Of a stretch of DNA of 64,000 nucleotides, positions 1-20,074 are shown piece after piece (the first letter of the stretch is position 1; every line of letters begins with the position of its first letter). The DNA comes from Elmis aenea (lineage: Eukaryota > Arthropoda > Insecta > Coleoptera > Elmidae), in assembly GCA_947652605.1 (NCBI GenBank), contig CANTFG010000087.1, forward strand, positions 20,516 through 84,515, given 5' to 3'. The notes under the pieces are model-generated. The model was given only the letters and a program-made list of their open reading frames with translations. It did no database searches and was not told the DNA's origin. A program made the position numbers and the translations under genes.

Positions 1-115
1 CACTTTACCTTGGGGACATTGCGCAGCTGCAGAATAAATAGTGGTGGTGGTGGAAAATGCTTCAGAAAACAATCAGTATTTAACAAGTCTTCTTATAATC
101 CTAACGTATCATAAA

Positions 116-583
116 ATGAGTGTGCCGAACATCAACCATATTTTGGCTGAGGCTTGTAAAGCAGAAGACGAGATCGACCCCAGTTTGATCGATGAAATAC
201 AAATACCTCAACACATAGACTATGAAAATGTATTATCCAGACAGTTATGGGATCAACATTATCAACATAAAGTTATGTTCAGTGATTTCGTTCCGGAAGA
301 GGAGTGTTATACGTTTTATTCATTAAATACTTTTACTCATGAAAAGATTAATTTTGTATGCTCAGACTGTTTTAATGTAGCAAAATACGTCTGGTATAAT
401 ACCGTACCAAACGCATTTTCTAGAATGCATCATTGCCACTCTAACCATGTAGTGTATTGCGATAAATGTTATAACCTTTGCAATGCGTCAACTCAATGTA
501 AATGTGAAAACTTGGAGTTTCACTATAGCATAAGACCGATTAATTTCTCTGCAAACGATTATGTTAATGAGTTAATTGTTTAA
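116..583 (+). CDS. Cys/His-rich small viral protein
   Basis: A 155-residue protein starting at the ATG at 116; an upstream in-frame GTG at 41 is less likely as a start. The C-terminal half is rich in cysteine and histidine (a CSDC pair, then HHCHSNH, CDKC, CNASTQCKC), suggesting a structural zinc-binding fold. The N-terminal half is acidic (EACKAEDEIDPS). It is the only plus-strand gene of the viral block and converges with the minus-strand array; AATAAA-type signals follow the stop. I do not recognise the family. In related elements this position tends to hold early or regulatory proteins, but that is inference only. Confidence 0.6.
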   Translation: MSVPNINHILAEACKAEDEIDPSLIDEIQIPQHIDYENVLSRQLWDQHYQHKVMFSDFVPEEECYTFYSLNTFTHEKINFVCSDCFNVAKYVWYNTVPNAFSRMHHCHSNHVVYCDKCYNLCNASTQCKCENLEFHYSIRPINFSANDYVNELIV

Positions 584-584
584 T

Positions 585-780
585 CTTTATTTTAGCATAA
601 GATCAATGTGCAATTATTATGTTTAACCTTTATTTTAATAAATATATGTTTACACAAATTCAATTGCATTTTTTTTTTTTTATCCCAAAAATTGTAACTC
701 TAAATAAATAAAACAAATCAGTTTATTTTTCATAAAAAAATTTATTACAATAAAATTGTATTACAATAAAAAAAAAATTA
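585..780. terminator. Convergent polyadenylation region
   Basis: A 196 bp AT-rich gap between the convergent plus-strand Cys-rich gene and the minus-strand array. It contains AATAAA-type hexamers on the plus strand (around 637 and 700) and their complements TTTATT on the other strand (around 720-745), as expected where two oppositely directed transcripts end. No ORF or hairpin stands out. Confidence 0.45.
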
Positions 781-1833
781 TCAGTGTATAATATTTTCTT
801 CTCGCAATTCTTCGATTATTGAAAGTATTTCGTTTTCATGATTGTTATTACCGGCTATTTTCGAAGCCCATAATAAACGCAAACGATTGATAAGTTCAGC
901 GGGTTTGTTCCAGTAGACGTACTCCAAAGGTCCATCAATGTATGTCTTTTTAGAAGAAGAAGAAATTCCTTCACCACCCCAGGTCTGCAATCGTTTTGCT
1001 CTAGTTTCATAAGGTGTTGTTCTTTTCGATGTCGACGTTTTCGGCGTTTCGTCAAGTAGTGGTTTTATAACAAATGAATATTTATAACCTCTATTGCTTT
1101 TTACCCGACTGTTGGGAAGAAAACCATGTTTATGCAAATTAGTTTGATCCATTATTTGCTTATAGATCTTCTTATCGCGTTCTTTAACCAGACGGTATGA
1201 GGGTTTATCCATGAAAAGTAATTCGTAAAGGCCCTGTGTGCCTTTGTGTAAAACATTATTAATTTTTATGTCAGCACCGATAATTTGGATGGGTGTGCTA
1301 CCTATTGACCATGAATCTGTCCCCTGATCATAATGAACTCCATAGGTATAGTCAATTTCTTTTTTATCATCTTTAATTAATTTTTCTAAATACTGACGAG
1401 GTAGTGGATCATATTGCTCGAGAAATATGTTCAAGACATCCTCGCTACTTCCTAACGTATCACGAAATACATTCTCTTCACCTTCATCACGAAATACTTC
1501 ATCATCGTCATCATGAGGAGGTGATGATTCAGCAATGAGATCAGTTGTTGTTAGGAATTTGGGTGTAGCTTGTTGTTGTTGTACTGATGTATCGTTAGTT
1601 TTAAAACTATGTTTAAATGGTGATGAATTGCTTTTTTCTAGTTTGATTTCACGTTTTATATCTGTCTTGGCTTGTTTTATAATTTCCTTCAGAGGTTCCG
1701 TTATCGGTTTATACGTTTGCTCACGTTTAAATGTTTCCTCAGCCTGCCCTAATTTTAAATCTCTGTATTTCTTTCTTACAGCTTTGCTCGTCTTAATTAA
1801 TTCACTTTTTAGTTTTTCATCTTCTTTGTTCAT
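781..1833 (-). CDS. DUF8207-like protein of Polinton-type elements
   Basis: A 350-residue protein from the ATG at 1833; an in-frame GTG nine bases upstream lengthens it by three residues but is a poorer start. The N-terminal third is lysine-rich and helical (KLKSELIKTSKAVRKKYRDL), followed by a low-complexity acidic stretch (SSPPHDDDDEVFRDEGEE) and a folded C-terminal part with YGVHYDQGTDSWSIGS, GTQGLYELLFM and YVYWNKPAELINRLRLL. That C-terminal pattern recalls proteins annotated DUF8207 in invertebrate Polinton-like elements; the assignment is from memory and unverified. Function is unknown; position next to the ATPase and capsid genes suggests a virion or assembly role. A candidate promoter motif lies just upstream. 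Confidence 0.6.
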   Translation of the reverse strand: MNKEDEKLKSELIKTSKAVRKKYRDLKLGQAEETFKREQTYKPITEPLKEIIKQAKTDIKREIKLEKSNSSPFKHSFKTNDTSVQQQQATPKFLTTTDLIAESSPPHDDDDEVFRDEGEENVFRDTLGSSEDVLNIFLEQYDPLPRQYLEKLIKDDKKEIDYTYGVHYDQGTDSWSIGSTPIQIIGADIKINNVLHKGTQGLYELLFMDKPSYRLVKERDKKIYKQIMDQTNLHKHGFLPNSRVKSNRGYKYSFVIKPLLDETPKTSTSKRTTPYETRAKRLQTWGGEGISSSSKKTYIDGPLEYVYWNKPAELINRLRLLWASKIAGNNNHENEILSIIEELREENIIH

Positions 1834-1849
1834 GTTGTACACTTAACAA

Positions 1850-1877
1850 CGAACACAAACATACTGATATTTGTATG
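1850..1877 (-). promoter_or_regulatory. Candidate promoter motif upstream of the DUF8207-like gene
   Basis: Read on the minus strand this is ACAAATATCAGTATGTTTGT followed by GTTCGTT, ending about 17 bases before the ATG at 1833. The same block with two changes lies at the same place before the next gene (2278-2302). The core contains TCAGT, which matches the arthropod initiator consensus. Promoter function is inferred from conservation and position. Confidence 0.45.
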
Positions 1878-1913
1878 TTAAACTAAGCAATTAATATATT
1901 AATCGCAGGTATT

Positions 1914-2246
1914 TTACTTAGGCACTATTTTAATAGCATCGCTATAAATTTTTTGAAGTGTATCTGCAGGCACCAACTTGATAATATCTGCATACAATTT
2001 TTGCACATTATCGATTAAATAAGTGAGGCTGTTAACCTTTTTTTCAAAATCTTCCATAAATTTCAGACGATCTGTGTGGACTTTTGCCTCGTAATCCTTT
2101 AAAGCAGTAAAAAACTTGGTACTAAATTCATTATTAACTCTGCTTAAATGGCTGAAAATTTCTATTCGTTCTGCATCACTTAAATCTAACCGACCACTTT
2201 TTAATTCTTTATTCGAACGTCGTCCAAACTTGTCGATACCAAACAT
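1914..2246 (-). CDS. Small coiled-coil protein with DKFGR N-terminal tag
   Basis: A 110-residue protein from the ATG at 2246. It begins MFGIDKFGRRSNKELK; the DKFGR-x-S element is also found at the start of the 99-residue fibre-like protein at 3012-3311. The remainder is predominantly helical with heptad-like spacing (ERIEIFSHLSRVNNEF, KFMEDFEKKVNSLTYLIDNVQ) and ends in two similar segments, ADIIKLVPAD and SDAIKIVPK. No enzymatic motif. The shared tag suggests both proteins dock on the same partner, possibly at the capsid vertex; this is inference. It is separated by about 70 bp from the ATPase gene. Confidence 0.6.
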   Translation of the reverse strand: MFGIDKFGRRSNKELKSGRLDLSDAERIEIFSHLSRVNNEFSTKFFTALKDYEAKVHTDRLKFMEDFEKKVNSLTYLIDNVQKLYADIIKLVPADTLQKIYSDAIKIVPK

Positions 2247-2277
2247 TTTTTTTTTTTTTCCTTATACGTGTGGTATA

Positions 2278-2302
2278 CTTAACGAATACAAACATACTAA
2301 TA
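2278..2302 (-). promoter_or_regulatory. Candidate promoter motif upstream of the coiled-coil gene
   Basis: On the minus strand ACAAATATTAGTATGTTTGT precedes ATTCGTTAAG and the ATG at 2246 by roughly 30-50 bases. It differs from the motif at 1850-1877 at only a couple of positions. A TATTAGT core also occurs 5' of the penton-like gene (6868-6882) and of the fibre-like gene (3340-3350). Confidence 0.45.
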
Positions 2303-2316
2303 TTTGTTTATTAACC

Positions 2317-3009
2317 TTACAAATGTATATAGCAATCAAAATTCTTACGGTAGCGACCGTTTTTCAAATCACTATCTTTATCTATAACTAACACGCCATA
2401 TTTATCATCCTTCCAGCAAGCGTTGCAAATATTTTTGAATTGTTCAAACGTCATATCGGTATTTACATGATCGTTGTATACATGTAGTAAATTTGTATAA
2501 TCCTGTTGAAAGAGTACAATTAAATTGGCATTATCACGAATTAATTGTTTTGGTATTTTGGAATATGTTTGACAAAGATAAAAACAGTCGATATTGTTGT
2601 GTCGACCCATACAAAAGTATTCGCGAATTCTATTTTGTTTGTCACAAATTATGTCATCAAAAATAAATATTGAATTACGTTTAGCCTCTCTCGGATCACA
2701 AATACTTTCGTTATCTGTAAATGTGTAATAACCTATTTCTTTTACAAGTTCGAGAGTGTGTTTTAAGAATAGATATTTTGGTTGATTTAAAAATTTTGAA
2801 TATACATACACGTTTTCGTATCGTAGACCATTCGGATCGGTAAGCAAGCTTATCAAGATATTTGTTTTACCGCAGTTGGATGGTCCGCACACTATACAAC
2901 GAATAGATGAAGGTAACAGCGAGCCATGTCTATGTTTATAATTTACAACTTTTATTGTCTCGTCGAAATTGTTTATCGGTAACGTTGATTGTTGCTTTAC
3001 TAACCGCAT
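2317..3009 (-). CDS. FtsK/HerA-type genome packaging ATPase
   Basis: A 230-residue P-loop NTPase. Walker A is GPSNCGKT at residues 42-49, Walker B is IFIFDD at about 114-119, and a polar sensor follows at CQTYSKIP (about 146-153). This architecture and length fit the A32-like packaging ATPases of Polintons, adintoviruses and virophages, which power insertion of the genome into the preformed capsid. The ATG at 3009 lies 2 bp from the stop of the fibre-like gene, so the two are probably co-expressed. All motifs are intact. The protein could only be confused with a cellular P-loop ATPase, which the viral neighbourhood makes unlikely. Confidence 0.8.
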   Translation of the reverse strand: MRLVKQQSTLPINNFDETIKVVNYKHRHGSLLPSSIRCIVCGPSNCGKTNILISLLTDPNGLRYENVYVYSKFLNQPKYLFLKHTLELVKEIGYYTFTDNESICDPREAKRNSIFIFDDIICDKQNRIREYFCMGRHNNIDCFYLCQTYSKIPKQLIRDNANLIVLFQQDYTNLLHVYNDHVNTDMTFEQFKNICNACWKDDKYGVLVIDKDSDLKNGRYRKNFDCYIHL

Positions 3010-3011
3010 CC

Positions 3012-3311
3012 TTACACTTTTTCTTCCAATTTTTTTAATTTTGCTTCTATATTTCGTACTTTAATGGTTAAACTCTCAAGTTCCGACTGCACATATTGTT
3101 TGTTTGCAACATCTTTTAGCAAGATGCCATCAACATACGCTTTAGTGGATGCATCTTGTACTTCAGTGGGATTCTTAACATTACACAGTCTTTTGTTTTC
3201 AATATTAAAATCGCCCGATTGTGTTAAAGTAAATCCTTGTCCAGGTATTCCACGTAAAAGTTTCGTTGTGGTCGCTTTCGAGCTGTGTCTTCCGAACTTG
3301 TCAACACTCAT
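3012..3311 (-). CDS. Fibre-like virion protein with DKFGR tag
   Basis: A 99-residue protein beginning MSVDKFGRHSSK. The middle contains NVKNPTEVQDASTKAYVDG (about residues 44-62), which closely resembles the repeat-like segment found in many phage tail fibre and collar proteins. Residues 70-99 form a coiled coil (ESLTIKVRNIEAKLKKLEEKV) suited to trimerisation. The combination of a short N-terminal docking tag, a beta-rich shaft segment and a coiled coil suggests a trimeric fibre or spike, but there is no recognisable receptor-binding head. The upstream gap 3312-3403 holds a TATTAGT-like core and an AT-rich leader. Confidence 0.55.
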   Translation of the reverse strand: MSVDKFGRHSSKATTTKLLRGIPGQGFTLTQSGDFNIENKRLCNVKNPTEVQDASTKAYVDGILLKDVANKQYVQSELESLTIKVRNIEAKLKKLEEKV

Positions 3312-3403
3312 TGTGAAATTGACTGTTGCCTAACTAAAAACTTAACTAATATAAAAACAAAATTCATTAAAAGCATTTATTAATTATTAATACATTTCAA
3401 AAT

Positions 3404-4315
3404 TTATTGCACAACGTTCTTTTTGTCAATCCAGGAGCGTTCATCAAGTCCAAGCCATTTCACGTACAACCTATTTCCTTTTCGACGCAATACTTTTTCA
3501 ATTAAATAAATGTCGGGGTTCAAAGTTTTTTGTAATTCGTACTCGTAAAATCCGCCTTCAATAGGACGTCCTTGCATATCTTCCAATTTATATGTTACCG
3601 GGTTGGTTAATTGAACATTGATAATTTTAAATAACTCTGTTGACCAAGATGGTGTGTAACCTTTATCAAAAATACTTTTATACTTACTTATCCTAACAAC
3701 ATCATTTATTTTATAACGATTTTTAACTGCCATTTTCAAATTACTATAAACCTTTAATTTTGTATCGGTGTGAAGAACATCAACCGGTTTCATGTTAGTA
3801 GTACTATGTTTACGATTATTGTAATTTTTTATGACTTCATCTAAAATATCAATCCATTTATAAGTACCACGCAAACTGAAGTGTTTATATAAATCATTCT
3901 TAATTGTTCTAATTGCACGTTCTGCAATTGCTGCTTTCTTAACACTATAAGTTGAATAATGATTAATATTGTATTTTTCCATAAGTAGTGCAAAAGATCG
4001 ATTGTAAAATTCTGTACCGTTATCGGTTTGTAAGTTTTTTGGAATATTACTACCTTTCTTAAATATTTCATTTTCAAACGTTTGAGCTACCTCTTTGGCA
4101 TTTTTTGATTTCAACGGACGAGCCCAAATATATTTTGAATAACAATCTATGACTAACACCATATACTTGTATCCCTTATTTTCTCTGGCATACAATCCGA
4201 ATTCTGCCAAATCAGCTTGATACAAATCTTTTAATTTTTTGATAATAGTTCGGCGTCGTGGAAAGTTTTTACGAGCTGGCTTATGCAATTCATCAACAAC
4301 TTGTTGTTTCGTCAT
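3404..4315 (-). CDS. Retrovirus-type integrase with C-terminal chromodomain
   Basis: A 303-residue DDE/RNase H-fold integrase of the Polinton/adintovirus type. The triad is Asp35 (QADLAEF), Asp98 (LQTDNGTEF) and Glu132 (AIAERAIR), spacing D-62-D-33-E. Beyond the core, residues about 200-260 form an SH3-like region (VVRISKYKSIFDKGYTPSW), and residues about 270-303 look like a chromodomain (IEKVLRRKGNRLYVKWLG, then SWIDKKNVV). The usual HHCC zinc domain is absent, as is typical of this group. It would insert viral DNA ends into chromatin. The start codon at 4315 is 3 bp beyond the stop of the upstream gene. All catalytic residues are present. Confidence 0.85.
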   Translation of the reverse strand: MTKQQVVDELHKPARKNFPRRRTIIKKLKDLYQADLAEFGLYARENKGYKYMVLVIDCYSKYIWARPLKSKNAKEVAQTFENEIFKKGSNIPKNLQTDNGTEFYNRSFALLMEKYNINHYSTYSVKKAAIAERAIRTIKNDLYKHFSLRGTYKWIDILDEVIKNYNNRKHSTTNMKPVDVLHTDTKLKVYSNLKMAVKNRYKINDVVRISKYKSIFDKGYTPSWSTELFKIINVQLTNPVTYKLEDMQGRPIEGGFYEYELQKTLNPDIYLIEKVLRRKGNRLYVKWLGLDERSWIDKKNVVQ

Positions 4316-4318
4316 TTT

Positions 4319-4807
4319 TTAATTATGCAGTTTACACCGGAATGGATGAATTATGTAATCGTAAATTAACTTTACATTTTCTACAGCACACACGCCACTC
4401 TTATGATAATAACACTTGGCATTCCAATGCGCGCTATTTAAGCGCGGTATATTTTTCAAATTAACAATTTGTTCCAAATCTTTCACGATTACATCGCCGT
4501 AAAAATATTTTCGAAGAAAATCACATTTTATTTGACCTTTACAATATATTACAGCAGCATACTTTTTAATATCGCTAAGTATATGTGGTATTCGTGATAA
4601 TTCTACGTCACCATCGGTCCACTTTAATTTATGATGATTTTTGATTAGCCAATTCGCTTGACGTTGAAGAGAAGTTGACAAACATTTGAATGGAAATGGC
4701 TCTTTAAATACGTAGTGTGCGATTCGTTCACCATCCCATATTGCTATCTCCTTTGGCACAAACTCTGGTGTTTTAAATCCTTGCACATCTATTACAATAC
4801 AGCTCAT
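4319..4807 (-). CDS. Possible exonuclease/Maelstrom-fold protein
   Basis: A 162-residue protein starting MSCIVIDVQGF. A beta strand with an aspartate at the N-terminus, RQANWLIKNHH in the middle and a late cysteine/histidine cluster (CYYHKSGVCAVENV) recall the DnaQ-like exonuclease fold and especially its Maelstrom branch with Cys/His ligands. The full set of acidic catalytic residues is not evident, so nuclease activity is doubtful. The ATG overlaps the stop of the capsid gene in the four-base ATGA at 4804-4807, an arrangement that allows termination-reinitiation. Family and role are inferred; otherwise a hypothetical viral protein. Confidence 0.45.
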   Translation of the reverse strand: MSCIVIDVQGFKTPEFVPKEIAIWDGERIAHYVFKEPFPFKCLSTSLQRQANWLIKNHHKLKWTDGDVELSRIPHILSDIKKYAAVIYCKGQIKCDFLRKYFYGDVIVKDLEQIVNLKNIPRLNSAHWNAKCYYHKSGVCAVENVKLIYDYIIHPFRCKLHN

Positions 4808-6012
4808 AATTTACGAACATCTCCATTCAATGGTCTATACTGGACTAAACAATCATGGAGAATAAGAGCATAAGCTGTGGTGTCTGATGTAAATACTTGT
4901 GTCGCTTCAAATTCCAAACGGATGTCAACTGTAGACGATTTAAGAGATTCGTTTTGTTTTGAGCAATCAAGAACATAGACAATAGAATCATGAAATTCTG
5001 TATACGTTAATAACGGTTGATTAGGACGATTATAATAACTCTTTTGAAAGTTAGCATAACTTTGATATGCTAACGCATAGCGATTTTTTTCAATATCCAA
5101 ATTCCATTGTTCGTATGGGTATACATCATGTAAATGTAATTTTATATTAGACAAAAAATTATGATCAAAAAGGCTGGAATCAAGCTTTTTATTGTATTTA
5201 CGATTTTTCTGGAATGCAAAAATTACGTAACGTGGTTTTTCTAAATGTCTCGAAGTTTTGACCGGCCAAACGTCTGCTTGAGCTTGACGCAAGGATGGCA
5301 GTTCATAAAGATCCCATTTGCGAAAAGCGATATTGATAGGAACATTTTTATTCAACTGTTTTAATAAATCCAATTTTGCTTCTTCGTTTAACTTAATATG
5401 AGGTACTTTCCATTGAACTTTAAGCAAGTCTAACGTAACGCTATTATTGGTGGACTGATAACAATTTTCATCACTCTTAGATCGAATCAATATCAATTCC
5501 AAACTGGTATTAATAAAAACCTTTTTATAATCCTCGGCTGATCCTAATAAATGTTTTAACGGTATGCAGGCACTGAAATTATCAGTAAGATTAGCACTTT
5601 TTTCATTTTTGAAACCCAAAAACCATCCAGCAGACTGAAGAGCTCTACTTTCAAAATCGTTGTAAGATACGAGTCCTTTTAAGGTACTAGTAATGCCCGG
5701 TTGTTTCGTAGAGTCTATTTCTTGACCGTTCAATTCTAACCTAACTTCTTCGAAAAGAAAAGCTAAGGAGTTATTCGTTAACTTATATTCGTTCTTAGTA
5801 TCAGGATCTGTTTTAGTAGCCACACCTTCAATGTATAAAAAACTATCGCAAACGGCTGACAATAAGTCCTGTCGTTGTATGCGTATACGAATTTCATCTG
5901 TATTGGCAAACTTCGTAGATCCATACGGTTGATATGTATGAATTTCTTCACTCGAAATTAATTCATCAAACACAACACCGTCAAAAACATTTAATTTTTC
6001 AAACGACGCCAT
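4804..6012 (-). CDS. Probable major capsid protein (double jelly-roll type)
   Basis: A 402-residue, beta-rich protein without enzymatic motifs. Its N-terminus (YQPYGSTKFANTDEIRIRIQ, then LYIEGV) resembles a widespread insect protein family occurring next to Polinton-type integrases and ATPases, and it is the largest protein of the virion block. In gene order it sits between the penton-like gene and the exonuclease-like gene, as the major capsid protein does in related elements. Length is at the short end for double jelly-roll capsid proteins. The fold cannot be proven by eye; structure prediction would decide. No internal damage is seen. Confidence 0.6.
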   Translation of the reverse strand: MASFEKLNVFDGVVFDELISSEEIHTYQPYGSTKFANTDEIRIRIQRQDLLSAVCDSFLYIEGVATKTDPDTKNEYKLTNNSLAFLFEEVRLELNGQEIDSTKQPGITSTLKGLVSYNDFESRALQSAGWFLGFKNEKSANLTDNFSACIPLKHLLGSAEDYKKVFINTSLELILIRSKSDENCYQSTNNSVTLDLLKVQWKVPHIKLNEEAKLDLLKQLNKNVPINIAFRKWDLYELPSLRQAQADVWPVKTSRHLEKPRYVIFAFQKNRKYNKKLDSSLFDHNFLSNIKLHLHDVYPYEQWNLDIEKNRYALAYQSYANFQKSYYNRPNQPLLTYTEFHDSIVYVLDCSKQNESLKSSTVDIRLEFEATQVFTSDTTAYALILHDCLVQYRPLNGDVRKL

Positions 6013-6146
6013 TGATGTTTTCTAACACGAAGTCCGATAGACTGTAAGAATTGTAAATCACCACGTGTTAACGGGTTCACGGACTGTGATTTAATAGATT
6101 TATTTTGATCTGGTAATCTTCTTTTATTACTAAAATCTATCCCCAT
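5991..6146 (-). CDS. 51-residue basic protein overlapping capsid and penton genes
   Basis: A small ORF from the ATG at 6146 to a TAA at 5991-5993, beginning MGIDFSNKRRLPDQ and ending basic (GLRVRKHQWRRLKN). It overlaps the stop of the penton-like gene by 17 bases and the start of the capsid gene by 22 bases, filling the only gap between them. The opening MGID-x-x-x-x-R-R is reminiscent of the GIDKFGRR start of the 110-residue protein. Its basic character would suit a core or cement peptide. Coding status rests on position, overlap pattern and the N-terminal similarity. Confidence 0.5.
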   Translation of the reverse strand: MGIDFSNKRRLPDQNKSIKSQSVNPLTRGDLQFLQSIGLRVRKHQWRRLKN

Positions 6147-6849
6147 TTGTAAGTTGTTTCAATTCTAGTCTTACTGTGATTTTTTCGTTGCCAAAATCTA
6201 CCAAATCACCGTCCTGGTCCACTATTGTTAAAGTAATATTATTTATACTTTTTGTTATAACTGGTAAATATATAATATTTGCGGGTTCCTTAGTTAATCT
6301 GTAACCTGGTTCAACGTTCACATCAAATTCAAAAACTGTATGCGATAAATCGTTATTATAATAAGCACCACTTGTGATGTTACACTCAATTCTAATATTT
6401 ATTATCTTCACAATTTCCACAGGTTTGTCAGACGAATGTAATTTATTCGGTTCCAATGATTTGGAAAATCCTAACAATTGTCCAATTGATTTTTTAGCAC
6501 TAAAATCAAGAGTGTATTTACTCTGAATTTCACACTTTAAGGTATTGTTATTCGGCCGAAGAGAAATATTATCGGCTCCAAGTTTATTCTGAATATAATT
6601 ATTTATTTCTGTAACTTCGTAAGCTCCGTGTGGTATTGAAATCGTTTGCGGCTTTTCTTCTGTTTTTTTAGGTTTTTCAATATAATACGCTAATGTGTTA
6701 TTTTTTTCGTTAACATTCGTTATAGAATTATATGTATAGAAGCCAACCAAACCAAGCCCATAGGAAAAATTCGGATCTAATTCTATCGGCGGAAAGTATG
6801 TGCTACTGAGAACGTTACTATTACCTGTTAAGGTGAATGTTCGAAACAT
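6130..6849 (-). CDS. Penton/minor capsid-like protein
   Basis: A 239-residue beta-rich protein beginning MFRTFTLTGNSNVLSSTYF. Alternating hydrophobic strands and the segment YEVTEINNYIQNKLG resemble the single jelly-roll minor capsid (penton) proteins of Polinton-like viruses and related insect ORFs. It is adjacent to the capsid gene, as expected. No catalytic motif. A TATTAGT core lies about 25-30 bases upstream of the ATG at 6849. The protein would be the natural docking partner for the tagged fibre-like proteins, but this is inference. Confidence 0.55.
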   Translation of the reverse strand: MFRTFTLTGNSNVLSSTYFPPIELDPNFSYGLGLVGFYTYNSITNVNEKNNTLAYYIEKPKKTEEKPQTISIPHGAYEVTEINNYIQNKLGADNISLRPNNNTLKCEIQSKYTLDFSAKKSIGQLLGFSKSLEPNKLHSSDKPVEIVKIINIRIECNITSGAYYNNDLSHTVFEFDVNVEPGYRLTKEPANIIYLPVITKSINNITLTIVDQDGDLVDFGNEKITVRLELKQLTNGDRF

Positions 6850-6880
6850 TACTAGCTATTTTTGCACGAATCACTAATAC

Positions 6881-7030
6881 TTATTTGTTAACAAGTTTGA
6901 GGGAGTCGAACACTTTTATTAAACTTCTCACTTGTTCGTAATCACGAACTTGTTGTTGTAAATGTTTTATATTTCTTAATAAACAGTCAAGTCTTGTTCT
7001 CAGTTCTTCATTTTTCTGCTCAGCATTCAT
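6881..7030 (-). CDS. 49-residue coiled-coil protein
   Basis: A short ORF from the ATG at 7030 to TAA at 6881, almost entirely predicted coiled coil (NEELRTRLDCLLRNIKHLQQ, then VRDYEQVRSLIKV). It lies in the array between the protease and the penton-like gene with 22 and 31 bp gaps, in the same orientation. Such gaps are otherwise not left empty in this genome, which supports coding status. No family recognised. Confidence 0.5.
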   Translation of the reverse strand: MNAEQKNEELRTRLDCLLRNIKHLQQQVRDYEQVRSLIKVFDSLKLVNK

Positions 7031-7052
7031 TGTACAACTAAAATATTTATGT

Positions 7053-7409
7053 TTATACAGCGGTATTATATAGAAATTTTAGACATAAATGTCCGCAATT
7101 ATAAGAATTATATTTTTGATGTCTTTCGTAATTGTATACGATTTTACTACCTCGAAAATAATCTACAACTTCTTTAGGCGGTCTTAAATTACCGAAACTA
7201 TCAAAATAGTCAACATTCGAATTTCGTTTTCTATATGCAACCCAATGTGTACCGGGACCACTGTCATCATCTAAATTGACTATTGCACTTTCATTTTTAT
7301 ACGCTTTATTGGGAAGCTTATTTTTCATGAAGACACCGCGAAAGTAAGGTGCATTTTTTGCATATATCAACAAATCTGCATCGGTAAGCGCTCTACGAGG
7401 TAGTTGCAT
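7053..7409 (-). CDS. Adenain-type cysteine protease
   Basis: A 118-residue protease of the adenovirus protease/Ulp1-like clan. The catalytic residues are visible in order: His55 (GTHWVAY), Asp70 (DYFDSFG) and Cys105 (SYNCGHLC), with Gln98 as a possible oxyanion residue. In adenoviruses and Polinton-like viruses this enzyme matures capsid precursor proteins. It is shorter than adenovirus adenain (about 200 residues) but typical for compact relatives. The start at 7409 is 2 bp from the stop of the PLA2 gene, so co-expression is likely. All catalytic residues are intact. Confidence 0.8.
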   Translation of the reverse strand: MQLPRRALTDADLLIYAKNAPYFRGVFMKNKLPNKAYKNESAIVNLDDDSGPGTHWVAYRKRNSNVDYFDSFGNLRPPKEVVDYFRGSKIVYNYERHQKYNSYNCGHLCLKFLYNTAV

Positions 7410-7411
7410 AC

Positions 7412-8185
7412 TTAGTTTTTTGGAGGTTTTAAAAATAAACCCATTCCTTTTCTGTACGGTTTCAAATATAAAGCACCTCCTTTTGTGTTGCCTATAGCCA
7501 CAGCCTCCATAACCCTATTGTGTCGTTCTGATTCTTTAAGTTGTTGCGCCGCTTCTTTGGCCTCGTTAACGGCCTTAACAATTCCTGCAGTTCCACCTGC
7601 TAGACCTCCCAAAGCCGACAAACCGGCAAATATTGCAGGTAAAAGAGGTAAAAATCCACCGGTTTTTGGTATTGGAATCACACGAGGTATTTTAACTTTT
7701 CGTTTTCCCCCCGCATTCTTGATTATTTGTTTGGCTGCTGTTAACGCCACATTCGCACCTTGATGTTCATTTTTAATGTCCGAATGCTTAAGTACATCTT
7801 TCACATTTCGTATAACATGGGTATTAAAATTAATTTTACGTTTGAGCTTCTTTTTCCTTATACCCAAACCCAATTTACGTTTAGCTTTCATAACGTTTGT
7901 CACTGTCCAAGCAGCAAATTTTTCATTAAATGAAGCGTCTGATGCTTTGACTCTCCGCCAAGCTTTTTCTTGTAATAAACGATCTGCTTCATGTCTTTTC
8001 TTTATATCATCTTTATAAACAGAATATGCAATATCATGGTCTCTACATGCAGAATCCAATGGATTTACCCCGATTTCCCCTCGGGCCAAACGTCTCTCCA
8101 ATTTAGTGCCAGGGCCGCAAAACTGATATCCTGGCCAATGAATTTCAAAGTCCAATTTGTTGATAGCATCGTTGAGGAATGACAT
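7412..8185 (-). CDS. Virion protein with parvovirus-type phospholipase A2 domain
   Basis: A 257-residue protein. The N-terminal domain carries the calcium loop YQFCGPGT (residues 20-27) and the His50-Asp51 dyad in SACRDHDIAY, the signature of the PLA2 domain found in parvovirus VP1 and in some adintoviruses, where it helps virions leave the endosome. Residues about 105-175 are highly basic (KRKLGLGIRKKKLKRKI), resembling a DNA-binding or nuclear targeting segment. Residues about 180-215 form a glycine/alanine-rich hydrophobic stretch (GLSALGGLAGGTAGIV), reminiscent of a membrane-active or pVI/pX-like region. The protein thus looks like a fused internal virion protein. It is the right-most gene. 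Confidence 0.75.
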   Translation of the reverse strand: MSFLNDAINKLDFEIHWPGYQFCGPGTKLERRLARGEIGVNPLDSACRDHDIAYSVYKDDIKKRHEADRLLQEKAWRRVKASDASFNEKFAAWTVTNVMKAKRKLGLGIRKKKLKRKINFNTHVIRNVKDVLKHSDIKNEHQGANVALTAAKQIIKNAGGKRKVKIPRVIPIPKTGGFLPLLPAIFAGLSALGGLAGGTAGIVKAVNEAKEAAQQLKESERHNRVMEAVAIGNTKGGALYLKPYRKGMGLFLKPPKN

Positions 8186-8209
8186 TACTATTTGTATTCT
8201 TCTCGCCTA

Positions 8210-8480
8210 CAAGGTGTATTAACCTCCAAGGAGTGCAAACAACTTGTCTGGACACGCAAAAACAAGTCTGTCGTTCTCCTCAGTCAAGGTCAACGAACCA
8301 GGTGTATTGGCAAACAACTTGTCTAGACACGCAAAAACAAGTCTCAACTTGTCGTTCTCCTCAGTCAAGGTCAACGACCCAGGTGTATTCGCAAACAACG
8401 GACACGCAAAAACTCAACTTGTTGTTCTCCTCAGTCAAGGTCAACAACTGTCTGGGATCGCTAATTCCCAAAAGTCAACA
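8210..8480. repeat. Tandem repeat at the right end of the viral element
   Basis: Two to three imperfect units of about 90-100 bp, each with AACAACTTGTCT..ACACGCAAAAACAAGTCT, TCGTTCTCCTCAGTCAAGGT and AGGTGTATT blocks, from just beyond the start of the PLA2 gene outward. ORFs reading through it are artefacts of the repeat. Likely a non-coding terminal region of the viral element. Confidence 0.7.
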
Positions 8481-8700
8481 ACCTTAAGTGACCATCAAGA
8501 CCACACGATTCATATATTTTATTTTTCTTTTAAATATTTTATTTTGAATGAAAACACGTTTCATTTAAATTGTTTAACATCAAGGACAACTACTGTCTGG
8601 GAATGCAATATGTTTACTTAGGTCAACAACTGTCTGGGTATGCATTTTTTTTTTTTTTAAAGTCAACAACCTTAAGTGACCATCACTGTCTGAGACCAGC
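8435..8700. repeat. Direct repeat pair beyond the viral genes
   Basis: The blocks AGGTCAACAACTGTCTGGG and AAAGTCAACAACCTTAAGTG occur at about 8439-8490 and again at about 8620-8675, roughly 180 bp apart, separated by AT-rich DNA. A long T tract follows (8735-8766). Confidence 0.6.
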
Positions 8701-8733
8701 AAACAAACAAGTTTAATTTTTTAAAATTTTTTT

Positions 8734-8767
<34 letters not shown>

Positions 8768-8779
8768 TCTAACACATCT

Positions 8780-8992
8780 AACATGAGGCCGAACCTACTT
8801 ATAGCATCTACTGTTATCGCTGACCAAAGTTTCACGTGAAACTGACGTGACCATGTTTACTGGGAAGGGTTGACCTGAAAACAAAAAAGAAATTCCAAAA
8901 TGTGTTATGCCTTACTATAGGTTAAGAGATTTAATCAATGTGTGCAATAACTTGCTATTCTTAGGAAATAAGATCATTGTACCTAGTACATA
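8780..8992. other. Unassigned spacer
   Basis: About 210 bp between the viral-element repeats and the TA-flanked foldback element. No ORF, repeat or recognisable signal was seen. Confidence 0.4.
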
Positions 8993-10870
8993 CAGGGTGA
9001 TTGATTGAGACCGGGCATTAAAAATATATGAGGAATGAAAAAGGGTATGGATCTGAAATTTTGGTTATGACCATAATGGCATCCGATCTGTTTATTGAAA
9101 ATATTTTCAAGATGGCGACACTTCCGCAAATACCGGAAGTTGACGTCTACTTTCTTATTTCAAATACAATGGTCTATTTTTTAGTGCATTTTTGGATTCA
9201 AAACGTTATTTTAGAGGGACTTTTATTAGCATTCCCTATACCTAAGTGCAGTCATTTTTTAGATTTTTGGACTTTTTTGAAATTTTTTTGATTTTTACCG
9301 TGATGCTTAATATTATCTAACATGGCCATTTTTAAAGAAAAAACGCTTAAATTTAGACCATGCCTAGAAGAAACCTTGGACTACATCCTGGAATTTTTGC
9401 AATCCATGAATTACTTACAGGGTGTCCAAAATTTAATTTTCTTTTAATACAACTTCAGACCACCAAAACTCGTTTTTTTCAAATACAATGCCCAAACTTT
9501 TTTTTCATTTTCTAATGCAAAATTACATTCTGCATCAACCTGTATTAGCGTTTCCTATACCTATCTGCAACAGTTTTCGAGTTATTAATAATTTTTGATA
9601 AAGTTAAGAGAAATTGCAACATTTTTAAATAGTAAGCCTTGGAAAATGACAGCAAATGCCAATATTAATAACTGTAAACCACTTTTATTGCGTTTGTCTG
9701 AAGCATCCATGAAAATGTATAATCAAGAGTATTCAAACACGAATATTTTGAACTTATTTTATATTCATGAAGAATGTAACAAGATTATTGAAAGAACTTG
9801 CCGCGTGGTCAGTGGGAGTTATCTTTATTTGACTGTAATGACCAGACAGAAATTTTAATGAATAGAATCAATTTTTTTTCAATTTAGAAGAGTGAAATCT
9901 GCTTGTATTCGACCTAAGCGTGTGACAAATGATGAAACTAACAAAGTTAACATCCTGAGATATTTTAATGACCATCCTCAGCGATCAATTCGATTGGTAG
10001 CGCAAGACTTGGGTTTAACATACTATGCTGTACAAGCTACATTAAAAATACACAACTATTCGTTCACACTTTCAATAATCTTCTGAATTTGTCCAAGAAT
10101 GTAAAATAAATTCAAAATATCCGTGTTTGAATACTCTTGATAATCCATTTCCATGGATACTTCAGACAAACGCGATAAAAGTGGTTGACGGTTATTAAGT
10201 ATTGGCAATTGTTGTCATTTCCAAGGCCTACTATTTAAAAATGTTGCAATTTCTCTTAACTTTATCAAAAATTCTTAATAACTCGAAAATTGTTGCAGAT
10301 AGGTATAGGAAACGCTAATACAGATTGATGCAGAATGTAATTTTGCATTAAAAAATGAAAAAAAAGTTTGGGCATTGTGTTTGAAAAAAACGAGTTTTGG
10401 TGGTCTGAAGTTGTATTAAAAGAAAATTAAATTTTGGACACCCTGTAAGTAATGCATCGATTGCAAAAATTCCAGGATGTAGTCCAAGGTTTCTTCTAGG
10501 CATGGTCTAAATTTAAGCGTTTTTTCTTCAAAAATGGCGGTGGTAGATAATATTAAGCATCACGATGAAAATCGAAAAATTTTCAAAAAAGTCCAAAAAT
10601 CTCAAAAATGGCTGCACTTAGGTATAGGGAATGCTAATAAAAGTCCCTCTAAAATAACGTTTTGAATCCAAATACGCAATAAAAAATAGACCATTGTATT
10701 TGAAATAAGAAAGTAGACGTCAACTTCCGGTATTTCCGGAAGTGTCGCCATATTGAAAATATTTTCATTAAACAGATCAGATGCCATTATGGTCATAACC
10801 AAAATTTCAGATCCATACCCTCTTTCATTCTTCATATATTTTTAATGCCCGGTCTCAATCAATCACCCTG
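8993..10870. mobile_element. Foldback mariner-type element with long inverted arms
   Basis: The element begins CAGGGTGATTGATTGAGACC and ends with its inverse, flanked by TA on both sides (8991-8992 and 10871-10872), the duplication typical of Tc1/mariner. The arms are very long: about 780 bp on each side (8993-9775 and 10095-10870) match as inverted copies with scattered changes. A roughly 320 bp unpaired centre holds a helix-turn-helix-coding remnant. The ORFs seen on the two arms are mirror shadows of each other. Confidence 0.75.
9887..10085 (+). pseudogene. HTH remnant of a mariner-like transposase in the foldback loop
   Basis: A short reading frame (about 60 codons) with KVNILRYFNDHPQRSIRLVA and QDLGLTYYAVQATLK, which matches the N-terminal HTH pattern (ILxFFxxNPxxSIRxAAxELG) of insect mariner-like transposases. 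It is preceded by a polypyrimidine-AG (TTTTTTTCAATTTAG) that looks like a 3' splice site. The frame ends in the right inverted arm; no catalytic domain is present. It probably records the origin of the foldback element from an autonomous transposon by deletion and inverted duplication. Confidence 0.5.
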
Positions 10871-10874
10871 TATA

Positions 10875-11900
10875 TACTAACGAAACAAGGAATAGAGTTT
10901 CAGACGACCATTAAAAATACGCGCCGACGACGATATTTCGCGATTTTTGGCGTGCGCGCGTATCCGGGGCCGCGCTTTCGATCGCGCGCGCTTCCAAGTC
11001 CGGCAATGGTCTTCCGGAGAAGCCATCGAGGAAAACGTGCGAAAATTTTACACGCAACATTTAAATCGGGTCGTCGGGAGCGAACATTTCGTCAAACATT
11101 GACAATTTGACATGTTGACGTGAACTTTGAACGCTCGAACCTTCTCCGATTCGACATTTTCGCGCATGTGTCGTACCGATTCGGATTCGTCTCGCTCTCC
11201 CCGACAAGTACGTACCAAACAATTCCATTTTCGAGTCGAATTCCGACCACGAACGAGAAAAAGCGCAGGCGCGCGCACGCGCTACATACTAACGAAATAA
11301 GGAATCGAGTTTAAAACTACGATTTAAAATACGCGCGGACGGCGATGATTCGCGATTTTTGGCGTGCGGACGTATCCTGGGCCGGTCTTTCGATTGTGCC
11401 AGCTCCCGAATCCGGCAATGGTCTTCCGGAGAAGCCATCGAGGAAAACGTGCGAAATTCTTACACGCAACATTTAAATCGGGTCGTCGGGAGCGGTAATT
11501 TCGTCAAAATTTGACAATTTGACAATTCGACGTGACCTATGAACGCTCGAACTTTCTCCGATTCGATCTTTTCGCACATTTGTCGTACCGATTCGGATTC
11601 GTCTCGCCCTCCCCGACAAGTACGTACCAAACAATTCCATTTTCGAGTCGAATTCGGACCACGAACGAGAAAAAGCGCAGGCGCGCGCACGCGCTACATA
11701 CTAACGAAATAAGGAATCGAGTTTAAAACTACGATTTAAAATACGCGCGGACGGCGATGATTCGCGATTTTTGGCGTGCGGACGTATCCGGGGCCGGTCT
11801 TTTGATTGCGGCCGCTCCCGAGTCCGGAAGAGGTCGTCCGGAAGTAAAATTCAGACCGCGAACGAGAAAAAGCGCAGGCGCGCGCTCGCACTATATACTA
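10875..11900. repeat. GC-rich satellite with ~411 bp period
   Basis: The phrase ACTAACGAAATAAGGAATCG starts units at about 11288 and 11700, with a diverged one at about 10879, giving a period near 411 bp. Each unit includes CGCGATTTTTGGCGTGCG, TCTTCCGGAGAAGCCATCGA and GTACGTACCAAACAATTCCA blocks and ends in a CG-rich GCGCGCGCAC tract. The short ORFs on both strands repeat with the unit and are not genes. Confidence 0.75.
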
Positions 11901-12420
11901 ACGAACGTTGAATTTCTTTGACGGGTCGTATAAAGGATCGACTTTTAATATGTGCACGCTCCGGACCTCGGAAAAAATCGTTTGCAAACGTAATTAACTA
12001 AAACGTGCAAAATTTTTCGTATTTACGTCGCGCGCGCCCGCACTATACACTAACGAACGTCGAAAGCCTTTTTTCAAAAAGCGATTAAAAATGCACAGAG
12101 GCGCGTTTTTTTTGTCAAGTCGTATGGGGTATAGAGGATCGAATTTTAATATGTGCACGTTTTGGACCTTAAATAAAATCGTTTGCAAACGTTATTAAGT
12201 AAAACGTGCCAAAATGTTCGTACATACATGATGAAAGCGTCGTCGCGCGCACGCACTGTCAAACTTTGACAGAATAATGTAAACGCTCAGACCTTCTCCA
12301 CTGTAGCTTTATGTTCATGTATCATACCAAATCGGTATCGCCTCGCTCTCCACTAAACATACATACGAAACAATCCCAGTTTCATGTTGAATTCAGAATA
12401 TGAAAATACGATGATACTGT
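11890..12420. repeat. Diverged satellite-related block, copy 1
   Basis: Contains ACTAACGAACGTCGAAAGCC, TTTTTTCAAAAAGCGAT and TTTAATATGTGCACG phrases that recur in the same order at about 13990-14500. It appears to be a related but shorter satellite derivative adjoining the 411 bp array. Confidence 0.6.
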
Positions 12421-12429
12421 CAAAAAATT

Positions 12430-12615
12430 TCATATGTAACCTAGAAATTAAAGTATGTCAAAAGACAGTACTGTCAAACTGACAGCATAACCTAGAAATT
12501 GAAGTATGTCAATACTGTCAAACTGACAGCATAACTTAGAAATTGAATTATGTCAATACTGTCAAACTGACACCATAACCTAGAAATTGAAGTATCTCTG
12601 TCAAACTTTGACAAC
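12430..12615. repeat. 44 bp tandem repeat
   Basis: Three to four imperfect copies of a unit containing TACTGTCAAACTGACAGCAT and AACCTAGAAATTGAAGTATG. The CTGTCA..TGACAG part is itself an inverted repeat. Confidence 0.65.
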
Positions 12616-12659
12616 ATTCTATTATTATATATGTAATTTCAAACTCCATGCAACGGACC

Positions 12660-12728
12660 GTGATAGCCGGGTGGCTTCGATACGCGTTCACAACGCAGCG
12701 TCTGCGGTTCGAATCCGGGTGCGGGCAA
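12660..12728 (+). ncRNA. tRNA-like Pol III head, possibly of a SINE
   Basis: A box A-like TAGCCGGGTGG (12664-12674) and a perfect box B GGTTCGAATCC (12707-12717) are spaced as in a tRNA gene. The flanks cannot form a proper seven-pair acceptor stem and the T stem has a mismatch, so a working tRNA is unlikely. A tRNA-derived SINE head or tRNA pseudogene fits better; no tail boundary was found. Confidence 0.4.
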
Positions 12729-12729
12729 A

Positions 12730-13260
12730 AAGAGAATTTTCCGCGAAATTTTCTGTCCGATGGTACGTGCGTGCGACACGAGTTGTTCGGGTAGCGATTA
12801 TATAGGATTTGAAACAGGGTCCGGGTGCGCATTGCGTAGTTGATTAAGATTAATCGAAATTAAAAAGCATCTTCAGTATAATTGAATTTGGAAAATATTA
12901 GGTACAAGCTGTGAACGATGTATCTCTGGAACGGAGCCACCCAGACATGGGGGGGCTTTGCAGCAAACGAAAAATAGTTTAATACGAATTTTAATTAATA
13001 CAAAGTTGAAAAAAGAGGCATCAATGATTTGGAAAACATTAAGGTACACGAACTGTGATCGATGTATTATTATATACTACTAACTATACTACCTTCTGGA
13101 ACGGGGGAGCCACAAGAGACATATGGGGCTTGCACCAAATGCGAAAGGTAATTTAAATGTTTGAAACTGTGGAGACACTACAATAGTTACTGAATTAGAG
13201 AGAGGCCCCCACAGCAGCTAAATAAGTAACTAAACTCAGTGGCGCACGGCATATGGATAT
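12730..13260. other. Unassigned stretch
   Basis: AT-rich sequence between the tRNA-like head and the MITE. Two similar phrases (GGTACA..AACTGTGATCGATGTAT and GGTACAAGCTGTGAACGATG; TCTGGAACGG..AGCCAC) occur at about 12900-12940 and 13042-13110, showing an old duplication. No gene seen. Confidence 0.4.
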
Positions 13261-13262
13261 AC

Positions 13263-13688
13263 GTCCGCGTTCACAATGAACGTAGTAGATAACAGATAGT
13301 AGATAGTGGGTTAGTAGCTAAAGTTGAAATGCATAGAATCAAATGCAAGTGTTCACAATGGACGTAAGATTTACGTAGTCACTATATGGTAACTAAAGTG
13401 AACTATCTATGTTTAAAATTAATTAAAATTACAATGTTGAACGATGTTTAATACAACTTATTAACGTTATAATCCTCCACAAATCATCATGTAGAAATAA
13501 ATACGTACAATACAAGGTGTCAATTTGATAAACAACCTTCCGCGTTTAAATTGAGGTTATGTGCTATGCTACAAACAAGTCGGCTTTTACCCGTATCCAA
13601 GTAAACATTTCGTTACGGACTTTTTACGTATTACGCACTAACCACTATCTACTATCTGTTATCTACTACGTTCATTGTGAACGCGGAC
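13263..13688. mobile_element. MITE with ~50 bp terminal inverted repeats
   Basis: Starts GTCCGCGTTCACAATGAACG and continues TAGTAGATAACAGATAGTAG; the right end (13638-13688) is its inverse with few changes. The 426 bp element has no ORF of note. Target duplication is unclear, so the superfamily is not assigned. Confidence 0.65.
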
Positions 13689-13809
13689 TAACGCATAAAT
13701 AAAGTGAAACCATAATAAAATTATTTGTATACGTTGAAACGGTACCACTTCGAAACAAGGGACTTGCACAAAAAAAAGCAATTCTTTGCACAAAGAGAAC
13801 TCCACGCGA

Positions 13810-15880
13810 ACCCATTGGGTGCGAGCGCGAAGCGCGAGTAGTTTGGTGGCCCATTTATTACAGTGTGAAAAGCATCATGTAGGAGCGCGGAGCGCGAGTA
13901 GTAGGAATGTAGATTTATTCTAACTTGAAAAGCAATAACGAGTGTTGTGAATAAAAGTTCAGGCCGATAGTTAAATCTCCTTAAATCTACCCATAAGCGT
14001 ATAAAAATCGCGAATTTTCTTTGACGGGTCGTATAAAAGATTAAATTTTAATATGTGCACGCTCTGGGCCACAGAAAAAATAATTTGCAAACGTTATTAA
14101 CTAAAACGTGCAAAAGTTTTAATTTTTACGTCGCACTAACGAACGTCGAAAGCCTTTTTTCAAAAAGCGATGAAAAGTACTCAGGGCGTCCGAAAATCGC
14201 GATTTCTTTTGTTGTATTAATGATCGAATTTTAATATGTGCTCGCTCCGGACCTTGGGAAAAGTTATTAAGTAAAACGTGCAAAAAGTTTCGTACTTACA
14301 TGATGAAAACGTCGTCACCCGCACGCTTTCTCCAACTTTGAAAAAATAATAGAAACGCTCAGAACTTTTCCACTCTAGCTTTTTGTACATCTATCATACC
14401 AATTCGGAATGGCCACGCTCTCCCCTATATATGCGAAGCAATCCCAGTTTTGAGTTGAATTAAGACTTTAGTTTAGAATATGAAAATACGATGACACTAT
14501 GAATATTCATTTATTCGGTTTTAAAGAGCAATGAAGAGTGTTGTTAATAAAAATTTCAGCCAATCGATTGTTCATCAACCCGATTAGTTATAATTAATAT
14601 ATCTCGGGAAAATAGAGAAACGGAACATGCACCAAACGAAAGGTAATTTTTGAGAAAAAAGATTTCTACCCGGATCCATTGGGTGCGAGCGTGAAGCGCG
14701 AGTTGTTTGATTACCGATTTAATAGAATTCGAAAAGCATTAGGTGCGAGCGCGGAGCGCGAGAGTACGAATATTTATTTATTCTAATTTAAAAAGCAACA
14801 GCGATTGTGGTAAATAAAATTTGAACCGGTCAATTAATCGCCTCCAAAAAAAGTGACCCGCCTGGCTCAGCGCGAGTAGTATGACTGTCAAATTTCTCAA
14901 TTCTGAAAAGCATTTACGAGTATTGTAAATAAAAATTTGAGCCAATCGATTGATCATATCCGGCTTAGTTATAATCGATATATCTCGGGATAATAGAGAA
15001 ACGGAACGTGCACCAAACGAAAGGTAATTTTTTGCGCAAAGAGAATTTTACTCGCAAAGAGAATTCCACTCGGATCCATTGGGTGCGAGCGCGAAGCGCG
15101 AGTTGTTTGATTACCGATTTAATAGAATTCGAGAAGCATTAGGTGCGAGCGCGGAGCGCGAGAAGTACGAATATTTATTTATCCTAATTTAAAAAGCAAC
15201 AGCGATTGTTGTAAATAAAATTTGAACCGGTCCATTAATCGCCTCCAAAAAAAAAGTGACCCGCCTGGCTCAGCGCGAGTAGTATGACTGTCGATTTTTT
15301 CCATTTTGAAAAGAAATTACGAGTATTGTAAATAAAAATTTGAGCCAATCGATTGTTCATCGACCCGCTTAGTTATAATCAATATATCTTGGAAACATAG
15401 AGACACGGAACGTGCACCAAACGAAAGGTAATTTTGTGCGCAAAGTGAATTATACTCGGATCTATTAAGTGCGAGCGCGAAGCGCGAGTACTTTGATTAC
15501 CAATTTAATATAATTTGAGAAGCATTTGGAGCGAGCGCGGAGCGCGAGTATTACGAATATGGATTTATTCTAATTTAAAAAGCAATAACGAGTGTTGTAA
15601 CTAAAACTTAAACCGATCGATTAATCGCCTCCAAAAAAAGTGACCCGCCTGGCTCAGCGCGAGTAGTATGACTGTCGATTTTTTCAATTTTGAAAAGCAA
15701 TTACGAGTATTGTAAATAAAAATTTAAGTTGAATTGATCGATTGATCATCGACCTGCTTAGTTATGATCAATATATCTCGGGAACATAGCCACTGAACGT
15801 GCACCAAACGAAAGGTAATTTTTTGCGCAAAAAGAATTTTACGCGCAAAGAGAATTCTACGCGCAAGGCGGGATCTAGCG
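13810..15880. repeat. ~400 bp tandem units with GCGC-GAA-GCGC hairpin motif
   Basis: The phrase GCACCAAACGAAAGGTAATT recurs at about 14630, 15010, 15417 and 15801 (period roughly 385-405 bp). Each unit carries two hairpin-capable blocks, one GAGCGCGAAGCGCGAG and one GAGCGCGGAGCGCGAG, about 63 bp apart (for example near 14687/14748 and 15085/15146), plus AAGTGACCCGCCTGGCTCAG. A degenerate pair is also present at about 13828/13882. Confidence 0.7.
13990..14500. repeat. Diverged satellite-related block, copy 2
   Basis: Second occurrence of the ACTAACGAACGTCGAAAGCC..CAAAAAGCGAT..TTTAATATGTGC..AAAACGTGCAAAA series present at 11890-12420, in the same order and orientation, about 2.1 kb away. Confidence 0.6.
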
Positions 15881-15916
15881 GTAAAGTAGCCCCGAAGGGG
15901 CTACGGAATCGCTAGT

Positions 15917-19154: not shown

Positions 19155-19194
19155 TATATGTTATATTATATTTGCAAAAGAATTTTTTAGGAAG

Positions 19195-20060
19195 ATGTCA
19201 ACTCGGAAGTTTTTAACCCAAAAAGAACTGGTGGAGGTGGCAGCACGTATTATGAATGGGGAAGAGAGTGACGCAGAGCCGTTTGAAGACAGTGGCAGTG
19301 AATGGGAAGAGGACAATTTGGAAGTTGAATCAATTGGCTCCGACTCCGAAATTGATAAAGACGATGATTCTGTTCTTTATTCCATTCAACAAAGTCCTGT
19401 TCAAACTGAAGAAGTAATGGAATATAGTTTAGATGAGGACGATATTCCTTTATCAGAACTACGTACATGTTCAAAACACATAATAACCTTCGACAAAAAA
19501 AAGCGTGAAAGGCAAGAATGGCCATAAATGGTCAACAGAGTTACCGCAGAAATCCAAAAGAACGGCAGCTAGGAATATTATCCATTTTATATCGGGCTCT
19601 AAAGGGGAAGCAAAAAACTGTTCTACTCTGGATGATTATTTTTTGCATTTTTTTTTTCGACAATATATTTGACATTATTCTGCAACAAACAAATGTAGAA
19701 ATTGGCATACAGGCTCAAAAATACCATGGACATCAAAATGTTTCCAAAACGACCAAAGACGAACTGAAAGCTATGTTTGGTATTTTAATCCTTTCTGCCG
19801 CTAAAAAGGATAATCATTTGTCAGTAAAACTTATGTTTGATAGCACTATTTCCGGCACCATTTATAGATCATGTATGAATTATGATCATTTTGCATTTCT
19901 ACTGAACTGTCTTAGATTCGATGCAAAGGAAACTAGACAGGAGAGAAAAGTAAATGATCCTTTTACACACATTCGAGAGATTTGGGACATTTTTATTGAA
20001 ACCTGTAGATCTCAGTTTATGCAGTTATTGAGTTACGAGGATAATCAATTTTCGTGTCTG
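19195..20060 (+). pseudogene. piggyBac transposase, N-terminal half, frameshifted
   Basis: The first frame (19195-19527) gives the acidic N-terminus typical of piggyBac transposases (SDAEPFEDSGSEWEED). A second frame (19518-20078), partly out of register at first, gives the DDE_Tnp_1_7-like core start (TKDELKAMFGILILSAA, then HFAFLLNCLRFDA and IREIWDIFIETCR). The catalytic aspartates of the second half are missing. At least two frameshifts occur between 19490 and 19700. The element is dead. Confidence 0.7.
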
Positions 20061-20074
20061 TTCCCGCGTCGAAT

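What the first reader, a model, noticed from the sequence alone, without database searches (positions are those of the whole stretch)
1..8780. Undamaged endogenous adintovirus/Polinton-like virus with a complete virion module
Twelve minus-strand ORFs and one plus-strand ORF are all open, with intact catalytic residues in integrase, ATPase, protease and PLA2, amid otherwise decayed transposons. That contrast suggests a recent integration or selection for function, and the lineage may be undescribed.
Basis: partly seen in the sequence, partly recalled or inferred. Interest (0 to 1): 0.9.

Follow-up and report, generated by a model that had tools for sequence, protein, structure and literature searches.

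The report
Complete, recently inserted insect adintovirus provirus
The start of this window is the larger part of a complete and very recently inserted copy of an adenovirus-like DNA virus (a Polinton or adintovirus) in what looks like an insect genome; it is a well-preserved member of a known family, with an unusual pattern at its DNA ends that deserves follow-up.

Summary
Confirmed, with corrections. Window 1-8812 is the right 56% of a 15,754-bp Polinton/adintovirus provirus (contig C90:13574-29327). Both ends read AGTAGA..., flanked by a perfect 6-bp target duplication, GTTATC. AlphaFold models support a double-jelly-roll capsid protein and a penton. I count 11 minus-strand genes, not 12. 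"Otherwise decayed transposons" is wrong: an LTR element in the window has sampled LTR stretches 100% identical.

The insertion is recent: the same assembly holds the matching empty site (C2:40.48 Mb), colinear with C90 at 99.2-100% identity on both sides; whether that is the other allele or a young duplicate is open. Six sister copies differ from this one by 0.16-0.60% in the 3.7-kb interior; four have both ends and their own perfect duplications. The genome has 76 full-length, stop-free ATPase genes of this family.

Family: Adintoviridae, renamed Eupolintoviridae; new member of a known kind. Possibly new: the outer ~29 bp match between the two ends of each element but differ between elements, as if one end is copied onto the other during replication.

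The parts
1..8812 (.). right 56% of the 15,754-bp provirus (whole element C90:13574-29327; the left part is in L009:3059-10000)
1..37 (+). 3' end of the PolB gene (starts L009:6273), with OTU-like N-terminal region
116..583 (+). 155-aa ORF, Cys/His-rich, unknown function
   Evidence: no accepted Pfam match
781..1833 (-). 350-aa ORF, unknown function
   Evidence: 10 synonymous to 3 nonsynonymous variable codons among 7 copies
1914..2246 (-). 110-aa helical-looking ORF with N-terminal DKFGRRS tag
2317..3009 (-). A32-type packaging ATPase
   Evidence: Pfam Pox_A32 7.2e-10
3012..3311 (-). 99-aa fibre-like ORF with N-terminal DKFGRHS tag
   Evidence: phrog_1640 tail protein 4.3e-5
3404..4315 (-). 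retrovirus-like integrase
   Evidence: rve 2.6e-14; DDE residues
4319..4807 (-). 162-aa ORF, unknown function
   Evidence: no Pfam match
4804..6012 (-). double-jelly-roll major capsid protein
   Evidence: PF21738 5e-99; model pLDDT 84.9; PBCV-1 MCP 3.1e-18, mavirus MCP 6.5e-14
6130..6849 (-). penton (minor capsid protein)
6881..7030 (-). 49-codon small ORF
   Evidence: reality as a gene not tested
7053..7409 (-). adenain-like cysteine protease
   Evidence: Peptidase_C5 6e-3, under cut-off; H55, D70, Q98, C105
7412..8185 (-). protein with parvovirus-type PLA2 domain
   Evidence: PF08398 1.5e-11
8476..8812 (.). right terminal inverted repeat arm (left arm L009:3059-3401)
   Evidence: about 85% identical arms
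8813..8818 (.). target site duplication GTTATC (other copy directly left of L009:3059)
   Evidence: single copy at the empty site

Best explanation
A complete provirus of an integrating double-stranded DNA virus of the adintovirus (Eupolintoviridae) / Polinton kind. Inferred cycle: PolB copies the linear genome by protein priming from the AGTAG ends; capsid protein, penton, protease and ATPase build and fill an icosahedral virion; PLA2 helps it out of the endosome; the integrase inserts the linear DNA with a 6-bp stagger. Shown here: anatomy, folds of the two capsid proteins, ends, TSD, several close copies with their own TSDs, the empty site, purifying selection among copies. Inferred: protein priming, virions, entry, current activity. 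This insertion is younger than the separation of the C90 and C2 versions of the locus.
For: Domains and folds; PolB related to 'PolB [Megastigmus wasp adintovirus]' (46% over residues 8-1242); TIRs, AG...CT ends, 6-bp TSD; four sister copies with distinct perfect TSDs; interior divergence 0.16-0.60%; 29 synonymous to 16 nonsynonymous variable codons, p 1.7e-7 against an assumed 73% nonsynonymous; empty site with colinear flanks.
Against: No expression or particle data. Pfam PF03175 (DNA_pol_B_2) is not hit by this PolB, though recorded for many of its homologs. Selection is uneven: INT 3 synonymous to 7 nonsynonymous, 99-aa gene 1 to 4. One sister has an in-frame stop in INT, and two sisters lack a left end where expected. 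The sister ends diverge more than the interior, up to 42 of 1,180.
Confidence: 0.93

Rival explanations
1. The element now moves only as a transposon in the germ line; its virion genes are recent inheritance and no particles pass between animals.
For: Many copies in one genome (76 of 106 ATPase matches full-length without stop); no particle evidence.
Against: Capsid and penton changes private to this copy spare conserved columns (0 of 93 and 0 of 48, against 13 of 303 and 11 of 176 elsewhere), so virion genes were under constraint until recently.
Confidence: 0.3
2. C90 and C2:40.48 Mb are a young segmental duplication, not two alleles; the insertion is then recent but may be fixed.
For: C90 carries three further large insertions that C2 lacks; the locus lies in a repeat-rich part of C2.
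Against: C90 is a short unplaced contig of 84.5 kb and flank divergence is about 0.35%, as expected of a haplotig; none of this is decisive.
Confidence: 0.3
3. A host-domesticated copy kept for a host function.
For: Open frames in this copy and purifying selection.
Against: Near-identical copies at several sites and an empty counterpart site; constraint is spread over several genes of several copies.
Confidence: 0.03

Closest known systems
Adintoviruses (Adintoviridae, renamed Eupolintoviridae 2025; PMC11071296, PMC12451622)
   Same: PolB with OTU-like N-terminal region, DJR hexon, penton, rve integrase, ATPase, protease, lipase-type protein; PolB 46% identical to Megastigmus wasp adintovirus PolB
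   Different: No named record close to it was listed; Alpha/Beta clade not determined
Polinton/Maverick elements of vertebrates (PMC8097293)
   Same: Two convergent gene blocks, size about 16 kb, 6-bp TSD, AGT-type ends
   Different: Ends AGTAGA rather than (AGT)2 or (AG)3 in the window lineage; ATPase lies on the strand of the virion genes, not with PolB
Mavirus (virophage)
   Same: Best solved match of the penton model and a good match of the MCP model
   Different: About 12% identity over the aligned penton

Membership tests
Adintovirus (definition in PMC11071296, section 16) | PolB with N-terminal OTU-like domain | tested here: met
   PolB homology across residues 8-1242 to an adintovirus PolB; the OTU-like motif itself was read by eye, no Pfam OTU match
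Adintovirus (definition in PMC11071296, section 16) | Hexon recognisable by BLASTp with adintovirus hexons | tested here: inconclusive
   Hexon fold and PF21738 shown; no named adintovirus hexon was among the 120 of 314 homologs listed
Adintovirus (definition in PMC11071296, section 16) | rve integrase with C-terminal chromodomain | tested here: inconclusive
   rve met; chromodomain suspected by eye only, no Pfam match
Polinton/Maverick | Terminal inverted repeats with AG...CT ends and 6-bp TSD | tested here: met
Polinton/Maverick | PolB, integrase, ATPase, protease and two jelly-roll capsid proteins in one element | tested here: met
   the protease rests on a sub-threshold match and residues
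Virus in the strict sense | Particles that carry the genome | not testable with these tools
   no particle or read data

The most novel reading that the evidence does not exclude
The lineage is an integrating DNA virus still active in its host population (insertion present on one version of the locus and absent from the other in the same assembly), and its elements carry a record of linear replication: the outer ~29 bp are identical at the two ends of each element but differ strongly between elements, while the rest of the 340-bp terminal repeat keeps about 15% difference between arms. One end would serve as template to repair the other over a short stretch during protein-primed replication, so that tips tag replication lineages.
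Probability: 0.4. Interest if true: 0.7.

Novelty: new member of a known kind. Interest (0 to 1): 0.5.

Why it matters
Adintoviruses and Polintons are mostly known as integrated copies, and it is rarely clear whether a lineage still moves. A complete copy with a matching empty site, sister copies within 0.2-0.6% in the interior and many related intact genes makes that question directly testable in one host. If the end pattern is general it gives an indirect record of how these linear genomes replicate.

Tried and rejected
Scans of viral contigs with MCP, an MCP alignment and INT found no relatives. Sequence search of the PDB found nothing for penton or PolB and only weak ribosomal-protein matches (E 0.68, 0.81) for MCP. 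PHROGs and NCBIfam did not name PolB as a polymerase. A shared promoter-like motif upstream of several genes was looked for in the one 85% relative held and not seen there as such; dropped. The idea that INT lacks its N-terminus was dropped: stop-free full-length relatives have frames of 300-339 aa. TIR arms were not used for dating, as all five elements compared show a similar arm difference (83-87% identity). For the 59% and 56% lineages I fetched end pieces of five copies each and found no repeat pair; the geometry differs. In the 83-85% group I fetched ends of 10 of 15 copies: five gave a repeat pair, three of them a TSD, two none (one of those two has N in its left flank). MCP, PolB and the other genes were not counted genome-wide. 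Host species not determined; insect is inferred from named homologs and the transposons. Papers: PMC11071296 passages and section 16; PMC8097293 passages and section 7; PMC9963324 and PMC12451622 passages; all others search listings only. That tip homogenisation is unreported rests only on searches (and 114 for adenovirus), a weak basis.

Full report
What is there. Window 1-8812 carries 11 minus-strand ORFs and one plus-strand ORF. Pfam names the capsid protein (DJR-like, 5e-99), integrase (2.6e-14), A32-type ATPase (7.2e-10) and PLA2 (1.5e-11); the protease match is sub-threshold. Residues expected for catalysis are present (roles recalled). The window begins inside the element. The stretch to its left (L009 = C90:10516-20515) holds a PolB frame that ends at window 37, four shorter plus-strand ORFs of 82-136 aa, and the left terminal repeat.

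Ends. The element runs from C90:13574 to C90:29327 (window 8812), 15,754 bp. Both ends begin AGTAGATGCTATAAGTAGG and GTTATC stands on both sides. The terminal repeats are about 340 bp and about 85% identical.

Relatives. MCP has 314 homologs at E<=0.001; of the 120 listed, the best seven are 75-84% identical and carry no informative name, and named ones come from fireflies, scarabs, ants, a sawfly and a leafhopper. PolB has 6,529 homologs among 7,980 scored; among the 120 listed is 'PolB [Megastigmus wasp adintovirus]', 46% identical over residues 8-1242. PF03175 is recorded for many of these homologs but is not hit by this PolB. ICTV renamed Adintoviridae to Eupolintoviridae (PMC12451622, passages). 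More than 1,000 contigs assigned to this family were reported from Colorado potato beetle data (PMC9963324, passages). So the kind is known.

Copies in the same genome. G000 has 516 Mb in 302 contigs. The ATPase has 106 matches; 78 cover at least 226 of 230 residues, 76 of them without a stop (recount). Seven including the window's are listed at 100% protein identity, one of these with a single difference; 15 are at 83-85%, and most others at 52-60%, in groups with equal scores. INT has 130 matches, the weakest of them probably retrotransposon integrases; 77 cover at least 279 of 303 residues and 71 of these have no stop (counted by hand). The six sisters differ from the window copy by 6-22 substitutions in 3,157-3,683 compared bases, 0.16-0.60%. 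Four have both ends, each with its own perfect TSD (GACGAG, GCCACA, CATAGT, TTTTAG); one has only the right end, and one runs into a contig end on the right; neither of these two had a left end where expected. The outer 1.2 kb differ more: 0-33 of about 1,175 on the right and 10-42 of about 1,190 on the left, partly in A/T runs.

Selection. Variable codons over the seven copies: 29 synonymous and 16 nonsynonymous; against an assumed neutral 73% nonsynonymous, p is 1.7e-7, without correction for codon usage or for shared descent. It is uneven: ATPase 8:1, 350-aa gene 10:3, 162-aa gene (part) 6:1, 110-aa gene 1:0, but INT 3:7 with one stop and the 99-aa gene 1:4. In MCP and penton, changes private to this copy fall on 0 of 93 and 0 of 48 strongly conserved columns, against 13 of 303 and 11 of 176 others.

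Recency. The left flank matches C2:40484484-40485483 over all 1,000 bases at 99%. C2 reads ...GACGTTATC|GCTGACC... with one GTTATC and no element. C90 and C2 are colinear on both sides: 6 mismatches in 1,701, 0 in 287, 4 in 1,539, 1 in 157, 7 in 1,320 and 0 in 175, together 18 in 5,179, or 0.35% (blocks above 99.2% identity, gaps not counted). C90 has three further insertions that C2 lacks: window 8988-15911, window 18771-24079 and C90:8167-10872. The last 407 bp of the left flank is repetitive (7 places), but its first part is matched in full only at C2 (C127 joins from position 419). So C90 is another haplotype or a young duplicate, and the insertion is younger than their separation.

Surroundings. 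The neighbours are not all decayed: see the LTR element at 44356-53538.

Tip pattern. In an alignment of both ends of five elements (window and four sisters), the first 29 columns (28 comparable) hold 8 columns that differ between elements but agree between the two ends of each, and no fixed difference between arms; beyond them there are 0 of the first kind and 38 of the second in 327 comparable columns, with 36 mixed. Fisher gives 5e-10 for the first contrast and 0.057 for the second; columns and elements are not independent, so the first value overstates. A genome-wide pattern search found 15 such ends and none with the reversed pattern as control; three tip types occur, two of them with both GG and CC a few bases further in, which points to exchange between tips. 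In the 83-85% group the repeat is 99-100% identical between arms over 162-354 bp in the five pairs found among ten copies fetched, with three tip types. I favour repair of one end from the other in a panhandle intermediate (adenovirus analogy recalled); selection for matched ends is an alternative.

Verdict. A complete, recently inserted member of a known virus family, with one end pattern worth following.

Noticed in passing
window 8784-8812 and L009:3059-3087, and ends of four sister copies: Outer ~29 bp identical between the two ends of each element but different between elements; the rest of the repeat differs about 15% between arms.
   Followed up: yes
window 1914-2246 and 3012-3311 (minus): Two otherwise different small proteins share an N-terminal tag DKFGR; both keep it in the seven copies held, and the 99-aa protein also in the 85% relative L008. 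A common docking tag on the capsid is a guess.
   Followed up: partly
L009:4856-5266 (+): 136-aa ORF that looks like a small glycoprotein: hydrophobic start and end and several N-glycosylation sequons, by eye.
   Followed up: no
window 44356-53538: LTR retrotransposon with two sampled 300-bp LTR stretches 100% identical and long open frames.
   Followed up: partly
window 8984-10879: Foldback element with 662-bp arms, 96% complementary, inside a 6.9-kb stretch (8988-15911) that is absent from the C2 version.
   Followed up: partly
window 58591-59534: Tandem array with a 47-bp period.
   Followed up: no
G000 C5:34.77-34.79 Mb, C1:45.54-45.55 Mb, C8:4.87-4.89 Mb: Elements of different lineages lie within about 10-22 kb of each other in several places.
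   Followed up: no
P0129 and P0151 (penton homologs): Penton relatives of 320-328 aa seem to carry an internal repeat of part of the protein (by eye).
   Followed up: no
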